A DNA stretch of 64,000 nt from Gymnodinialimonas sp. 202GB13-11 (GTDB lineage: Bacteria > Pseudomonadota > Alphaproteobacteria > Rhodobacterales > Rhodobacteraceae): contig NZ_JBFRBH010000001.1 in the NCBI RefSeq assembly GCF_040932485.1, positions 1,116,001 to 1,180,000 of the forward strand, written 5' to 3'. The position numbers were made by a program, and so were the translations under genes. Each line of letters starts with the position of its first letter. The stretch's first letter is position 1. Positions 8,802-50,406 of the stretch are shown here, piece by piece. The notes under the pieces were generated by a model. The model had not been told where the DNA came from and made no database searches. It saw only the letters and a program-made list of their open reading frames with translations.

Positions 8802-9509
8802 TCAGGCGCCAGCGGCCAGCTGGTTGTGCTTGCGGGCTACGAACTGCTTCGCGGTTTCAACGGCGACTGCGGCGTCCCGGCAATAGGCGTCTGCGCCGAT
8901 GGCTTTACCGAATTCCTCGTTCAGGGGCGCACCGCCTACCAGGACGATGTAATCGTCGCGGATGCCCTGCTCGACCATCGTATCGATCACGACCTTCATG
9001 TAGGGCATGGTCGTGGTCAAAAGTGCGGACATGCCGAGGATGTCTGGGCCTTCAGCCTCAAGCGCCTCCAGATAGGCTTCGACCGCGTTGTTGATGCCGA
9101 GGTCCACAACCTCAAAGCCTGCGCCTTCCATCATCATCGACACAAGGTTCTTGCCGATGTCGTGAATGTCGCCTTTGACGGTGCCGATCACCATCTTGCC
9201 CACACGGGGCGCTCCCGTTTCGGCCAGCAGGGGCTTCAGGATGGCCATGCCGCCTTTCATGGCGTTGGCGGCCATCAAAACCTCTGGCACGAACAGGATT
9301 CCGTCGCGGAAATCATTACCAACGATGGTCATGCCGCCCACCAGCGCTTCGGTGAGAACGCGGTAGGGTTCCCAGCCGCGCTCCAGCAGGATGTTCACGC
9401 CTTCTTCGATCTCCTCCTTGAGGCCATCGTAGAGGTCGTCGAACATCTGGGCGACGAGGTCTTCGTCGTTGAGTTCGGACAGGACGATATCGTCTTCTTC
9501 GTCAGACAT
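8802..9509 (-). CDS. corrinoid (B12)-binding protein, probable cobalamin module of a split methionine synthase
   Basis: 235 residues from the ATG at 9509, with GGAGAAG as ribosome site. An acidic leader is followed by a four-helix cap domain (about residues 15-98) and a Rossmann-like B12 domain (about 103-228). The base-off signature GDIHDIG has Asp114, His116 (the cobalt ligand) and Gly119, followed by SALLTTT and VGGAP. This equals the middle part of MetH or an MtbC/MttC-type corrinoid protein. The homocysteine methyltransferase 1.5 kb away supports the methionine-synthase reading; a demethylating methyltransferase system is the alternative. Confidence 0.88.
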   Translation of the reverse strand: MSDEEDDIVLSELNDEDLVAQMFDDLYDGLKEEIEEGVNILLERGWEPYRVLTEALVGGMTIVGNDFRDGILFVPEVLMAANAMKGGMAILKPLLAETGAPRVGKMVIGTVKGDIHDIGKNLVSMMMEGAGFEVVDLGINNAVEAYLEALEAEGPDILGMSALLTTTMPYMKVVIDTMVEQGIRDDYIVLVGGAPLNEEFGKAIGADAYCRDAAVAVETAKQFVARKHNQLAAGA

Positions 9510-9637
9510 GGGGCTTCTCCATGACAGGTCCGGGACGCACGCGGACCGGGGGCTTTTGAGAATTGGTAATCTTTTCCGGGCGCTGGACATGGCGAATTGC
9601 GACATGGGGCGTCTGCGCCGCGACCTGCCTTGCGAAT

Positions 9638-9652
9638 GTTCTATTTTTGTTC
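9638..9652. promoter_or_regulatory. LexA (SOS) box
   Basis: GTTC-TATTTTT-GTTC is a perfect match to the alphaproteobacterial LexA operator GTTC-N7-GTTC, with an A/T-only spacer as in strong sites. It ends 11 bases before the radical-SAM start codon and 129 bases from the divergent B12-binding gene. The first gene is the likelier target. One or two chance matches of this pattern are expected in 64 kb, but few would fall in a promoter. Confidence 0.75.
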
Positions 9653-9663
9653 CATGTTTGGGC

Positions 9664-10737
9664 ATGGCATTCCCGAACCCATCCAGACCTGCCGGGCGCG
9701 CGGCGCTGAGCAATGATGTCGGCCGGTTTGAGCGGCACGTACGGGAGGAGGTGGATGACGGGTGGGATATTGTAGAAGAAGCCAGCCCCCTGCGGACCGA
9801 AGTGACGGAGGAGGTGCCGCGGTCGGTGATCACCAAGAACACCTCGCCCGACATTTCGTTCGACCGCTCCATCAACCCGTATCGCGGGTGTGAACATGGC
9901 TGCATCTACTGCTTTGCGCGCCCAACCCACGCCTATCTGGGCCTGTCGCCAGGATTGGATTTCGAGACGCAGCTGATCGCGCGGCCCGAAGCCCCGCGTG
10001 TGCTGGAGGCCGAGTTGCGGCGCAAAAACTATCGGTGCGATGTGATCGCCATCGGCACGAACACCGATGCCTACCAGCCGATTGAGAAAGAGCGCCGCGT
10101 GATGCGGGGGATTCTTGAGGTTTTGCAACGGTTTCGCCACCCGGTCGGGATCGCCACCAAAGGCACCTTGGTTGAGCGGGACGCCGACATTTTGGGCGAG
10201 ATGGGGCAGGCGGGGCTGGCGCGTGTCGGAATGTCCGTCACGACATTGCAACCCGATCTGGCCCGCAAGATGGAGCCGCGCGTGCCGTCGCCCGCGCGTA
10301 GGTTGCAGGCGATTGGGCGGCTCAGCAAGGCAGGTATTCCGGTGAGCGTGATGGTCTCGCCTATCATTCCGGGGCTGACCGATCATGAGATCGAAGGAAT
10401 TGTCACCGCCGCGCGCGATGCGGGAGCGGTTGCAGCGAGCATGATCCCCCTGCGCCTGCCGCTTGAAGTCTCGCAGCTGTGGCAGGATTGGCTTGCCGAG
10501 TATTACCCTGAGCGGGTCGGTCGTGTGATGTCGAAGCTGCGCGATATGCATGGCGGAAAAGACTACGACGCCGAGTTCGGGAAGCGGATGCGGGGAGAAG
10601 GGATCTGGGCCGATCTTCTGCAACAACGTTTTTCGCGCGCTGTGCGGGCGGCTGGAATGGCTGAAAAGCTTCCGCCGCTGCGCACCGATCTGTTTGAGGT
10701 GCCGCTGGCGAACGGCGATCAATTGGCGCTGTTCTGA
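9664..10737 (+). CDS. PA0069-family radical SAM protein, spore-photoproduct-lyase-like, probably SOS-induced
   Basis: 357 residues from the ATG at 9664. The radical-SAM cluster motif CxxxCxxC is Cys76/Cys80/Cys83 in the context GCEHGCIYCFAR. The PA0069 family, related to the spore photoproduct lyase SplB group, has this motif together with the upstream NPYRG and the later IGTNTDAYQP, ATKGTLVERD and VMVSPIIPGL segments. Biochemical role unestablished. Starts further upstream would overlap the divergent gene. A LexA box immediately before the start suggests induction by DNA damage. No clear ribosome site is visible, so the exact start is uncertain. Confidence 0.85.
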   Translation: MAFPNPSRPAGRAALSNDVGRFERHVREEVDDGWDIVEEASPLRTEVTEEVPRSVITKNTSPDISFDRSINPYRGCEHGCIYCFARPTHAYLGLSPGLDFETQLIARPEAPRVLEAELRRKNYRCDVIAIGTNTDAYQPIEKERRVMRGILEVLQRFRHPVGIATKGTLVERDADILGEMGQAGLARVGMSVTTLQPDLARKMEPRVPSPARRLQAIGRLSKAGIPVSVMVSPIIPGLTDHEIEGIVTAARDAGAVAASMIPLRLPLEVSQLWQDWLAEYYPERVGRVMSKLRDMHGGKDYDAEFGKRMRGEGIWADLLQQRFSRAVRAAGMAEKLPPLRTDLFEVPLANGDQLALF

Positions 10738-10997: not shown

Positions 10998-12017
10998 TCA
11001 TGCACGGGCGCGGCGGCGACCCCGGCGTTCCCGTACCGGCCCGGCATTGGCTTCCGTGCCATCCACGTCTGATGAAAAGCCACCAAGCGCTGCTGCTATC
11101 ACCTCAAGGCTCGGGCGGTCGCCGCGTGGTGTCGTCTCCAACGCGCGGCGCATCTGGGTCAGATGTTCAGGGGTCGTGCCGCAGCATCCGCCGATGATCG
11201 TGGCGCCCGCATCCCGGGCCAGGCAGGCATAGTGTGCCATCAATTCGGGCGTGCCGTCGTAGTGGATATGACCATCGACGTATTTCGGGATGCCCGCATT
11301 GCCTTTGGCGATGATCGGACGCTCCGTCCCGCTTGCGGCAAAGCCAAGGACGGTACGCAGCAGATCGGACGCGCCGACACCACAATTTGCACCGAATGCC
11401 ACAGGCTTATGGTCCAGCCGCTCAACCATCGTGGCCATCGCGGCGGAGGTCAGGCCCATCATGGTGCGGCCTGCCGTGTCAAAGCTCATCGTGCCGCAGA
11501 AAGGCATTCCGGCCAGCTTGGCAGCCTCGGCAGCGGCCTTGTATTCCTCAGGTGCGCTGATCGTCTCGACCCACAGGACATCTGCGCCGCCTGCTTTCAG
11601 GCCCTCAGCCTGTTCGTGGAACATCTCAACGGCCAATTCATGGGTGAGCGCGCCCATCGGGGCCATGATCTCTCCGGTCGGCCCAACCGAGCCTGCAACG
11701 ATGACCGGGCGGCCCACTGTATCAGCAACCTCGCGGCCAATCTCGGCCCCGGCCTTGTTCAACTCAAACACGCGGTTCTGCGCGTCGTGCAGCTTGAGGC
11801 GGGCTGCCGTGCCGCCGAAAGTGTTGGTCAGGAAGAGGTCAGAGCCCGCATCAACTGCGCCCTGATAGAGTTTGGCGATGCGATCCGGATGGTCGATGTT
11901 CCAAAGCTCAGGCGCGTCGCCGGATTGCAGTCCCATGTTGAACAACGTCGTACCTGTTGCGCCATCGGCAAGCAGCCAATCGCGGGATTGCAAAAGGCGG
12001 GAAAGGGGGTCGGACAT
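10998..12017 (-). CDS. homocysteine S-methyltransferase family protein, probable homocysteine module of a split methionine synthase
   Basis: 339 residues. This is the zinc-dependent methyltransferase barrel that activates homocysteine as acceptor. Zinc ligands are Cys212 (GANCGVG) and the pair Cys278-Cys279 (GGCCGT), the pattern of MetH module 1 and of betaine-homocysteine methyltransferase, with which automated annotation often confuses it. The N-terminal DGATGTTL motif is present. The protein stops after this module and a basic tail (RRGRRRARA), so folate and cobalamin modules must come from other proteins. The corrinoid protein at 8802-9509 is the obvious partner. Confidence 0.88.
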   Translation of the reverse strand: MSDPLSRLLQSRDWLLADGATGTTLFNMGLQSGDAPELWNIDHPDRIAKLYQGAVDAGSDLFLTNTFGGTAARLKLHDAQNRVFELNKAGAEIGREVADTVGRPVIVAGSVGPTGEIMAPMGALTHELAVEMFHEQAEGLKAGGADVLWVETISAPEEYKAAAEAAKLAGMPFCGTMSFDTAGRTMMGLTSAAMATMVERLDHKPVAFGANCGVGASDLLRTVLGFAASGTERPIIAKGNAGIPKYVDGHIHYDGTPELMAHYACLARDAGATIIGGCCGTTPEHLTQMRRALETTPRGDRPSLEVIAAALGGFSSDVDGTEANAGPVRERRGRRRARA

Positions 12018-17786: not shown

Positions 17787-18548
17787 ATGCTGAGTGTGCA
17801 CACGCTTGGCGACCCTGACGGTCGCCCGGTCCTTTTTTTGCACCCCGGGAACACGGTGGGAACCGCATGGAAGGATGTCGTGGACCAGCTTCCGGGCATC
17901 AACGGCATATGCCCGGATCTTCCGGGCTTTGGCGCCAGTGCCCATCTGCCGTTGAAGGATTTTGAGGACAGCGCCGATCACCTTGCACGCTTTCTGGAGG
18001 CCGAGGGACTCGGCCCGCTGCCCGTGATCGGATATTCGCTTGGGGCCTATACAGGCATGATGTTGACCCTTCGCCACCCTCATCTTGTTGAAAAGGCGCT
18101 GCTGACGAGCTTCCAAGTCATGCCACTCAAGGGGCGGTGGTATCTGGTCCCGTTTCTGAATGTGATTTCGCCGCTGATGACCACGTTCCGCGCACGGAAA
18201 TCCGCATTCAAAGGTCTCGGTGTGGAAAATGCGGGATCGTGGTCTGTGACGCCCACGTCGCCATGCGATGCACGAACACTTCGTAGCATCGGTCGACTGG
18301 CTTGCGATTTCGACATTCGCGATCAGATCCACTCGATCGCGCGTCCCGTGCTTGTGATGTCCGGAGATCAAGAGATGGAGAGCATACAGGAAAGCGTGCA
18401 CCTTGTCGCGGAAGCCTCGCCCAACGCCAACGGGGCTTTCGCATCCGGCGGACACGGGTGGCCGGTGGTATCAAGTGCCATCTTCTTGCGAACCTTGAAA
18501 GCCTGGCTGGTGGATGCGCCGTTGCCAGACGCGTTGAAGATTGTGTAA
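17787..18548 (+). CDS. alpha/beta hydrolase
   Basis: 253 residues from the ATG at 17787, preceded by GGAAGTGGAG; in-frame Mets at 17748, 17769 and 17775 have weaker sites. The oxyanion HPGN motif, the nucleophile elbow GYSLGA, a late Asp (SGDQEM) and a final His (GGHGWPV) give a plausible Ser-Asp-His triad. No signal peptide, so cytosolic. Substrate unknown. It may be a single-gene unit, as a hairpin separates it from the two-component pair. Confidence 0.8.
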   Translation: MLSVHTLGDPDGRPVLFLHPGNTVGTAWKDVVDQLPGINGICPDLPGFGASAHLPLKDFEDSADHLARFLEAEGLGPLPVIGYSLGAYTGMMLTLRHPHLVEKALLTSFQVMPLKGRWYLVPFLNVISPLMTTFRARKSAFKGLGVENAGSWSVTPTSPCDARTLRSIGRLACDFDIRDQIHSIARPVLVMSGDQEMESIQESVHLVAEASPNANGAFASGGHGWPVVSSAIFLRTLKAWLVDAPLPDALKIV

Positions 18549-49289: not shown

Positions 49290-50399
49290 ATGCCCACGGA
49301 TCGCACCCCATGGCCGCTGATCGCGGCGCTTTACGTGACCGGCCTTTTGGCAGGGGCGCAATTTTCGAAAGTATCGTTGACGCTGGAGGGATTGGCGCAG
49401 GTTTATCCGGGCTGGCCGGTGGCCTTTGCAGTTTCCGGCGTGGCGGTGATTGGCATCCTGTTCGGGGTCATGGCGGGCGGTGTGACAGCCAGCATCGGGC
49501 CAAGGCGCGCGATCCTCTGGGCGCTTGCAATCTCAGGGCTGGCCGGTGGGCTTGGCGCGCTTTTGCCCCCCTTTCCGGTTCTCATGGCGATGCGGGTCTT
49601 TGAAGGGGTTGGCCACCTGATCCTTGTGGTGGCTGTGCCCACGCTGATGGCCGGTTTATCTGCGGACAGGGACCGGGCACTTGTGATGGGCCTTTGGGCG
49701 ACGTTCTTTGGCGTTGGCTTTGCTTTAACCGCCCTGCTGATCGGCGAGTCGGGTGTGAACCATGTCTATGCCGGCCATGCCGCGTTGGTCTTGGCGATGC
49801 TGGCCCTGCTCGCCTGGATGTTGCCCAAAGGTGTGGTGAGTGTGCGCCGCGCGATGCCGCGCCTGTCGGACCACCTGCTGATCTACACAACGCCGCGCCT
49901 GTTCGCACCGGGGCTTGGGCATGGGATCTACGCGGGCCTGTTTCTGGCGTTGATTACGTTTCTGCCGGATGCACTTGGCGCACCGTGGCTTGGCCCAGTT
50001 TTGCCTTTGGCCGGGATTGTGGGATCGTTTGCAGCGGGGATATTCGCGCGCTGGATCGCGCCGGATACGTTGGTGTGGAGCATGTTTGCCGCCATGGCCG
50101 TTATGTTCGCGGCAACGATGATGTCGGGGCCTGCCGCACCTTACGTTTTGATTGCGGCCATGGCCGTCAGCGGCGTGGTCGCGGGTGCAGGCTTTGCGGC
50201 GGTTCCATGGTTGAACGAGGCCAATGACGACCGTGCGCTGGCCAACGGGGCTTTGGCGCAACTTGGTAATATAGGCACCTTCAGTGGCACGCCCATTTTC
50301 GCGGCCTTGGCGGTGGGGGCCTATTTCCCTGTCGCCATTGCGGTGTGCATCGTGGCAGCTTTTGTCACCGGTCTGGCCTACCGCGCCGCGCGTTCCTGA
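49290..50399 (+). CDS. MFS transporter
   Basis: 369 residues with about 11-12 hydrophobic helices. N-terminal half has [16 protein letters not shown] in helix 1 and the motif-A-like [14 protein letters not shown] between helices 2 and 3. It resembles compact CynX/NimT-like or sugar-type MFS members; substrate unknown. Divergent from the vWA gene, with 145 bases between them. Its last codons hold the first half of the uvrA LexA box. Confidence 0.8.
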
Positions 50400-50406
50400 A
50401 ACGTTC
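50392..50406. promoter_or_regulatory. LexA (SOS) box of uvrA
   Basis: GTTC-CTGAAAC-GTTC is a perfect alphaproteobacterial LexA operator. It overlaps the stop codon of the upstream MFS gene (50397-50399) and lies 54 bases before uvrA. uvrA is a known LexA target in Rhodobacter and other alphaproteobacteria, which supports the call. Confidence 0.88.

What the first reader, a model, noticed from the sequence alone, without database searches (positions are those of the whole stretch)
9638..10737. LexA box in front of a spore-photoproduct-lyase-like radical SAM protein
A perfect GTTC-N7-GTTC operator with an A/T-only spacer sits 11 bases before the start of a PA0069-family radical SAM protein (CxxxCxxC at Cys76/80/83). 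The family is widespread but has no established function. LexA control would link it to DNA damage, for example reversal of a photolesion or nucleotide modification. Chance matches of the box are possible in 64 kb, but placement at a promoter is notable.
Basis: partly seen in the sequence, partly recalled or inferred. Interest (0 to 1): 0.7.

Follow-up and report, generated by a model that had tools for sequence, protein, structure and literature searches.

The report
SOS-controlled radical SAM repair-like enzyme
A bacterial gene for an iron-sulphur radical enzyme that resembles a DNA-repair enzyme sits behind a conserved DNA-damage switch; that link is already published for its relatives, but what the enzyme acts on is unknown and it lacks a key residue of the known repair enzyme.

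Summary
GTTCTATTTTTGTTC lies at 9638-9652, 11 nt before the ATG (9664) of a PA0069-family radical SAM protein. The bare motif is no commoner than chance, but the placement is conserved: a perfect box precedes 66 of 72 orthologues examined in the family, 85 of 97 in other Alphaproteobacteria and 76 of 80 named loci. In 28 of 39 orthologues from other classes the gamma/beta LexA box CTGT-N8-ACAG takes its place; none of the 39 has the alpha box. LexA control is close to certain, short of a binding assay.

It is not new in kind: LexA sites before 'splB' in alpha- and beta-Proteobacteria were published in 2012.

I read it as an SOS-induced radical SAM enzyme, probably acting on damaged nucleic acid by chemistry other than SPL's. 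The substrate is untested.

The parts
9630..9635 (+). -35-like element TTGCGA
   Evidence: Read. TTG at -35..-33 from the ATG is conserved in family loci with 12-nt spacing (43 loci: T 43, T 32, G 36). TTGC-N4-box occurs once in the window against 0.02 expected. The strict E. coli promoter scan finds no site here.
9638..9652 (+). LexA operator GTTCTATTTTTGTTC (alphaproteobacterial GTTC-N7-GTTC), filling 15 of the 17 bases between the -35 and -10 elements
   Evidence: conserved in 66 of 72 family loci and 76 of 80 named loci.
9653..9658 (+). -10-like element CATGTT, 17 bp from the -35 element; first base of the ATG (9664) is 6 nt downstream, predicted transcription start (leaderless)
   Evidence: Read; TANNNT peaks at -12 from the ATG in orthologues (25 of 65 short-spacing, 27 of 61 long-spacing loci). 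In the window the spacing is 11, so the element sits one base closer. Prediction only.
9664..10737 (+). PA0069-family radical SAM protein, 357 aa, CxxxCxxC at Cys76/80/83
   Evidence: NF033668 501.7 bits; Pfam Radical_SAM 82.7 bits; predicted fold closest to spore photoproduct lyase.

Best explanation
The gene is an SOS gene. LexA bound at 9638-9652, between the -35 and -10 elements, blocks RNA polymerase. When RecA filaments form on damaged DNA, LexA cleaves itself and the gene is transcribed, most likely from the A of its own ATG as a leaderless mRNA, so induction needs no Shine-Dalgarno sequence. The product is a [4Fe-4S]/SAM radical enzyme with the overall fold of spore photoproduct lyase. 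It most likely acts on damaged nucleic acid, but not by SPL's cysteine-dependent H-atom return. Shown here: operator, its conservation in step with the LexA motif of each class, fold similarity, missing conserved cysteine. From established knowledge: the LexA/RecA switch. Inferred: promoter strength, leaderless start, nucleic-acid substrate. Confidence by step: LexA control 0.95, leaderless start 0.7, damaged nucleic acid as substrate 0.55, not an SPL in mechanism 0.75. The figure below is for LexA control together with a nucleic-acid-damage role.
Against: No expression, binding or start-site data for this gene. The E. coli consensus scan finds no promoter at 9500-9720, and the -10 match CATGTT is weak. 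A strict leaderless pattern is not enriched in this genome (4 matches against 2 for the reversed control) and does not include this gene. 20 of 146 alpha loci have other box-ATG distances. 11 of 39 non-alpha and 12 of 97 class orthologues lack a perfect box, and a Pseudorhodobacter plasmid copy has none. Nothing here shows a DNA substrate; the model is poor (pLDDT under 50) at 77-100, the cluster-binding loop.
Confidence: 0.55

Rival explanations
1. It is an SOS-induced enzyme whose substrate is not damaged DNA: for example an RNA or nucleotide-modifying radical SAM enzyme, or a maturase of another protein, raised during DNA damage.
Against: SPL stands clearly above the other folds, and relatives fall in what published work calls SplB/COG1533. 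SOS control kept across different LexA motifs fits damage repair best.
Confidence: 0.28
2. It is a true spore photoproduct lyase that reverses 5-thyminyl-5,6-dihydrothymine, as proposed for splB of alpha- and beta-Proteobacteria.
For: Best fold match is SPL; the Tyr before the third cluster cysteine is invariant (285 of 285); published authors call the LexA-regulated alpha/beta gene splB.
Against: No cysteine beyond the cluster three is conserved: the next best columns reach 74, 72 and 55 of 285. SPL needs C141 (PMC3742179 passages). The residue after the third cluster cysteine, Tyr99 in SPL, is Phe in 239 of 285, window protein included. No SPL model is among the 10 NCBIfam hits at E 1e-3, and phmmer and the profile search of PDB sequences did not find SPL.
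Confidence: 0.12
3. The box serves the divergent corrinoid-protein gene (8802-9509, minus strand) rather than the radical SAM gene, or both.
For: The box lies in the intergenic stretch between two divergent genes; 128 nt separate it from the corrinoid gene's start at 9509.
Against: The box stays next to the radical SAM ATG in lineages whose upstream neighbour differs: a corrinoid-protein-like neighbour lies upstream in only 14 of 80 named loci (identified by reading), against a box in 78 of 80.
Confidence: 0.03
4. The box is a chance match without function.
For: The bare motif is not enriched in window or genome.
Against: Conservation at one position in orthologues, far above shuffles, and exchange for the gamma/beta box outside the class.
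Confidence: 0.02

Closest known systems
LexA-regulated splB genes of alpha- and beta-Proteobacteria (Sanchez-Alberola et al. 2012, PMC3323433; section 8 and passages seen)
   Same: A radical SAM protein called SplB, preceded by the class-specific LexA box, predicted by comparative genomics in groups with different LexA motifs.
   Different: That work does not, in the parts I saw, describe the -35/-10 geometry, a leaderless start or the missing SPL cysteine, and says the trait is not seen in gamma-Proteobacteria. My non-alpha sample has CTGT-N8-ACAG in 28 of 39, and one named gamma locus (Aeromonas, L372) has it. Whether its splB genes are all PA0069-family members I did not check.
Spore photoproduct lyase (PDB 4FHC to 4FHG, 4K9R, 4RH0)
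   Different: No conserved cysteine in place of C140/C141; Phe in most members where SPL has Tyr98/99; LexA control instead of sporulation control (the latter as told in PMC12029717, passage).
Rv2578c family radical SAM proteins (NF038135)
   Same: Second-best NCBIfam match, 229 bits over residues 52-288; a 'DNA repair photolyase' of M. tuberculosis is induced by mitomycin C in a RecA-dependent way (PMC8151990 passage). That this gene is Rv2578c is recalled.
   Different: Below that family's cut-off of 430 bits.
mmcB SOS gene of the same family of bacteria
   Same: Box-to-ATG spacing 11-12 nt in 18 of 30 loci examined, TTG upstream of the box.
   Different: Unrelated protein (PF06319).

Membership tests
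Alphaproteobacterial LexA (SOS) regulon | GTTC-N7-GTTC operator at the promoter | tested here: met
   9638-9652; 11 nt before the ATG.
Alphaproteobacterial LexA (SOS) regulon | Operator conserved before orthologues | tested here: met
   66 of 72 and 85 of 97; 76 of 80 named.
Alphaproteobacterial LexA (SOS) regulon | LexA present, and the same motif before known SOS genes of the genome | tested here: met
   lexA at C1:1761427-1762113 with three half-sites upstream; recA and mmcB; imuB-like gene.
Alphaproteobacterial LexA (SOS) regulon | LexA binding and damage induction | not testable with these tools
   Needs experiment.
PA0069 family radical SAM protein (NF033668) | Score above the curated cut-off | tested here: met
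   501.7 bits, cut-off 360.
Spore photoproduct lyase | Overall fold | tested here: met
Spore photoproduct lyase | Radical SAM CxxxCxxC | tested here: met
   Cys76/80/83, 285 of 285 sequences.
Spore photoproduct lyase | Fourth, catalytic cysteine (C141 in B. subtilis, C140 in Geobacillus) | tested here: not met
   No further conserved cysteine in 285 sequences; best column 74 of 285. By counting back from the shared TK motif the SPL cysteine falls on Asn133, or Thr132 with a one-residue gap; neither column holds a Cys. The automatic alignments do not cover this stretch reliably, so the exact column is inferred.
Spore photoproduct lyase | Tyr directly after the third cluster cysteine (Y99 Bs / Y98 Gt) | tested here: not met
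   Phe84 here; Phe 239, Tyr 46 of 285.
Spore photoproduct lyase | Match to an SPL sequence model | tested here: inconclusive
   No SPL model among the 10 NCBIfam families at E 1e-3; I did not check that the library holds one. PDB sequence searches did not return SPL. hhalign of the profile with a 206-residue SPL piece: probability 23%, E 9e-4, 151 columns.
Spore photoproduct lyase | Repair of spore photoproduct | not testable with these tools
   Needs enzyme assay.
Leaderless mRNA | -10 element placing the start at the ATG, and no Shine-Dalgarno | tested here: met
   Orthologues: T-12 37, A-11 43, T-7 30 of 43 at 12-nt spacing; TANNNT peak at -12 in both spacing groups; SD-like 4-mers in 2 of 65 short-spacing loci but 14 of 61 long-spacing ones. 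Against: the strict promoter scan of the window finds none.
Leaderless mRNA | Mapped 5' end at the start codon | not testable with these tools
   Needs 5' end mapping.

The most novel reading that the evidence does not exclude
Alphaproteobacteria keep a distinct class of SOS promoter (this gene and mmcB) in which the LexA operator lies between or on the -35/-10 elements and the mRNA begins at the AUG. Through it they express, under damage, a radical SAM enzyme of SPL fold that mends an unrecognised DNA lesion by a chemistry without SPL's cysteine/tyrosine radical relay.
Probability: 0.25. Interest if true: 0.75.

Novelty: new member of a known kind. Interest (0 to 1): 0.42.

Why it matters
SOS control of splB-like genes is on record, but their substrate is not, and authors have taken spore photoproduct or general photoreactivation for granted (PMC3323433, PMC3925955). 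The conserved loss of SPL's catalytic cysteine argues against that and makes the question testable: which lesion accumulates in a mutant? A LexA-repressed leaderless promoter, if confirmed, would be an SOS output that does not depend on Shine-Dalgarno initiation during damage stress.

Tried and rejected
Bare-motif statistics: no signal in window or genome, so conservation was used instead. Strict leaderless pattern in the own genome: 2+2 matches against control 0+2, uninformative and missing this gene because its spacing is 11. Strict E. coli promoter scan: none. PADLOC: no family for P0001 at E 0.01. PDB sequence searches: no SPL; weak hits only, best SkfB E 0.0013. Mafft placement of the SPL fragment puts its cysteine at V26 across a large gap and the global pairwise alignment is meaningless, so I counted from the TK motif. 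Neighbourhood as a clue to function: the corrinoid protein and homocysteine methyltransferase next door are not general neighbours. Phages: 10 records with distant matches only, none covering 80% of the query. Gram-positive boxes: one Arthrobacter relative has a one-mismatch match to GAAC-N4-GTTC (GAACATACATTC), a Priestia one none; too few to use. Xanthomonas-type box: 1 of 39 non-alpha loci (L157, TTAGTAATAATACTA); that this is the Xanthomonas LexA motif is recalled. Pseudomonas PA0069 as an SOS gene (Cirz 2006) and the Caulobacter SOS regulon (da Rocha 2008) are recalled; PA0069 with LexA gave no held paper, PA0069 alone three listed ones, one opened and irrelevant, and PMC2238201 is not held. 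Searches bearing on novelty of a leaderless LexA promoter: 2 papers, seen as a listing; 12 of 95 listed; passages of three read; they name leaderless mRNAs in Sinorhizobium (171) and Bradyrhizobium (192 at the start codon) but no LexA.

Full report
1. What is there. The box GTTCTATTTTTGTTC is at 9638-9652 and the gene starts at ATG 9664. The protein is a PA0069-family radical SAM protein (NF033668, 501.7 bits, cut-off 360) with Cys76/80/83. Upstream and divergent is a B12-binding (corrinoid) protein gene (8802-9509, -), downstream and convergent a homocysteine S-methyltransferase gene (10998-12017, -).

2. Chance. GTTC-N7-GTTC alone is at chance level: 3 in the window, 1.79 expected; 105 in the genome, 127 for the reversed control. 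With an A/T-only spacer it is unique in the window, 0.00 expected. TTGC-N4-box is also unique, 0.02 expected. The same 15-mer occurs once more in the genome (C1:654958-654972, -).

3. Conservation. I searched NF033668 in three samples: family 109 of 149 genomes matched, 106 over the cut-off; class 100 of 190, 92 over; phylum 117 of 299, 111 over. From these I read 208 loci: 72 of the family (70 of the 109 matched, plus L185 and L190), 97 of other Alphaproteobacteria (69 of the 92 over the cut-off, plus 28 top-scoring ones, which over-represent a few rhizobial genera) and all 39 non-alpha ones over the cut-off. Within 300 nt upstream a perfect box stands in 66 of 72, 85 of 97 and 0 of 39; CTGT-N8-ACAG stands in 0, 0 and 28 of 39. 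In-gene controls were 4, 1 and 0 for the alpha box and 0 for the gamma box; the reversed pattern was found in 0, 4 and 0. With inverted boxes and about 200 nt the counts are 67 of 72 and 81 of 97; shuffles reached at most 3 and 2, and 1 for the gamma box. Of the five family loci without a box, four have a one-mismatch box and L047 has only a truncated upstream stretch.

4. Named genomes. A scan of species genomes gave 80 named loci, the best of at least 596: 76 have the box, 2 (both Ruegeria) have it inverted, and 2 (L234, L305) are one mismatch away; in-gene and reversed controls were 0 of 80.

5. LexA. The genome has lexA (188.9 bits) with GAAC-N7-GAAC-N7-GAAC before it. Boxes lie before recA, mmcB and an imuB-like gene. 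In the class sample 91 of 92 genomes with PA0069 over the cut-off have a LexA match at E 1e-3, against 69 of the other 98. Genome size confounds this: many genomes without the gene are small.

6. Promoter geometry. Anchored on the ATG, 43 of the 65 family loci scored have exactly 12 nt between box and ATG. In these 43, T-35 (43), T-34 (32), G-33 (36), T-12 (37), A-11 (43) and T-7 (30) stand out. In other Alphaproteobacteria 50 of 85 have 23-25 nt; with 24 nt (20 loci) T-35 (20), T-34 (20), G-33 (18), T-12 (14), A-11 (18) and T-7 (17) stand out at the same places, although the box is 12 bp further up and now covers the -35 element; with 25 nt (20 loci) the signal is blurred (T-13 12, A-12 15, T-7 15). 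TANNNT peaks at -12 in both groups (25 of 65 with spacing 9-16; 27 of 61 with 21-28; 20 of 146 loci fit neither). This is the spacing expected if transcription starts at the A of the ATG. SD-like 4-mers at -20 to -4 occur in 2 of 65 and 14 of 61. In the window: TTGCGA 9630-9635, 17-bp spacer filled by the box, CATGTT 9653-9658, ATG 6 nt later. The strict E. coli scan does not accept this promoter. mmcB has the box 11-12 nt before its ATG in 18 of 30 loci (24 of 30 have a forward box); recA has an inverted box 41-74 nt upstream in 26 of 30 (30 best of 48 and of 51 matched genomes). Leaderless mRNAs are experimentally known in Alphaproteobacteria (PMC3616915, PMC4842269; passages).

8. Reading. 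LexA control of a radical SAM enzyme of SPL fold is well supported. That it repairs DNA is likely but inferred; that it is an SPL is unlikely. The window genome also has a Phr-type photolyase homologue, so it would not be the only photolesion enzyme.

9. What was known. [quoted passage not shown] PMC8565304, PMC7739468, PMC3765255 and PMC8151990 (passages) report SOS links of SplB-like or radical SAM proteins in other phyla. The finding is thus a member of a known kind; the promoter geometry and the missing catalytic residues are additions I did not meet in those passages or in the listings.

Noticed in passing
Own genome C1:1213519-1213641 (L006:1020-1142): A 40-aa ORF with one hydrophobic stretch and an SD sequence, 3' of a RecG-like gene and behind LexA-like half-sites GTTCTCAAATGTTCTCAAAAAGTTC; no Pfam match. 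It could be an SOS cell-division inhibitor like Caulobacter SidA (recalled).
   Followed up: partly
Own genome C1:654958-654972 (L001, minus strand): The identical 15-mer box, 3 nt before an ATG whose roughly 128-aa ORF matches only the C-terminal OB-fold part of error-prone DNA polymerase (PRK05672 positions 951-1039 of 1047).
   Followed up: partly
L229-L308: An RNase HII gene (PF01351 checked for one) follows the PA0069-family gene on the same strand in 43 of 80 named loci, by title mostly Hyphomicrobiales, so it may be SOS-expressed there.
   Followed up: partly
mmcB loci L310-L339: mmcB has the same 11-12 nt box-ATG geometry in 18 of 30 loci.
   Followed up: yes
L055, L247, L249: In a few Rhodobacteraceae (two titled Ruegeria) the box is inverted (GAAC-N7-GAAC) but still just before the ATG.
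   Followed up: partly
L157: A non-alpha orthologue without CTGT-N8-ACAG has TTAGTAATAATACTA upstream, like the Xanthomonas LexA motif (recalled).
   Followed up: no
L373 (Pseudorhodobacter turbinis plasmid): A plasmid-borne PA0069-family copy without a LexA box in 500 nt upstream.
   Followed up: no
Phage records H6-H10: Distant radical SAM relatives in Dulem virus 36 (annotated as PA0069 family) and in Acidianus two-tailed viruses (24-27% identity over about 47% of the query).
   Followed up: no
window 17849-17863 (-), 50392-50406 (+): Two more GTTC-N7-GTTC matches with G/C-containing spacers, at the chance level.
   Followed up: no
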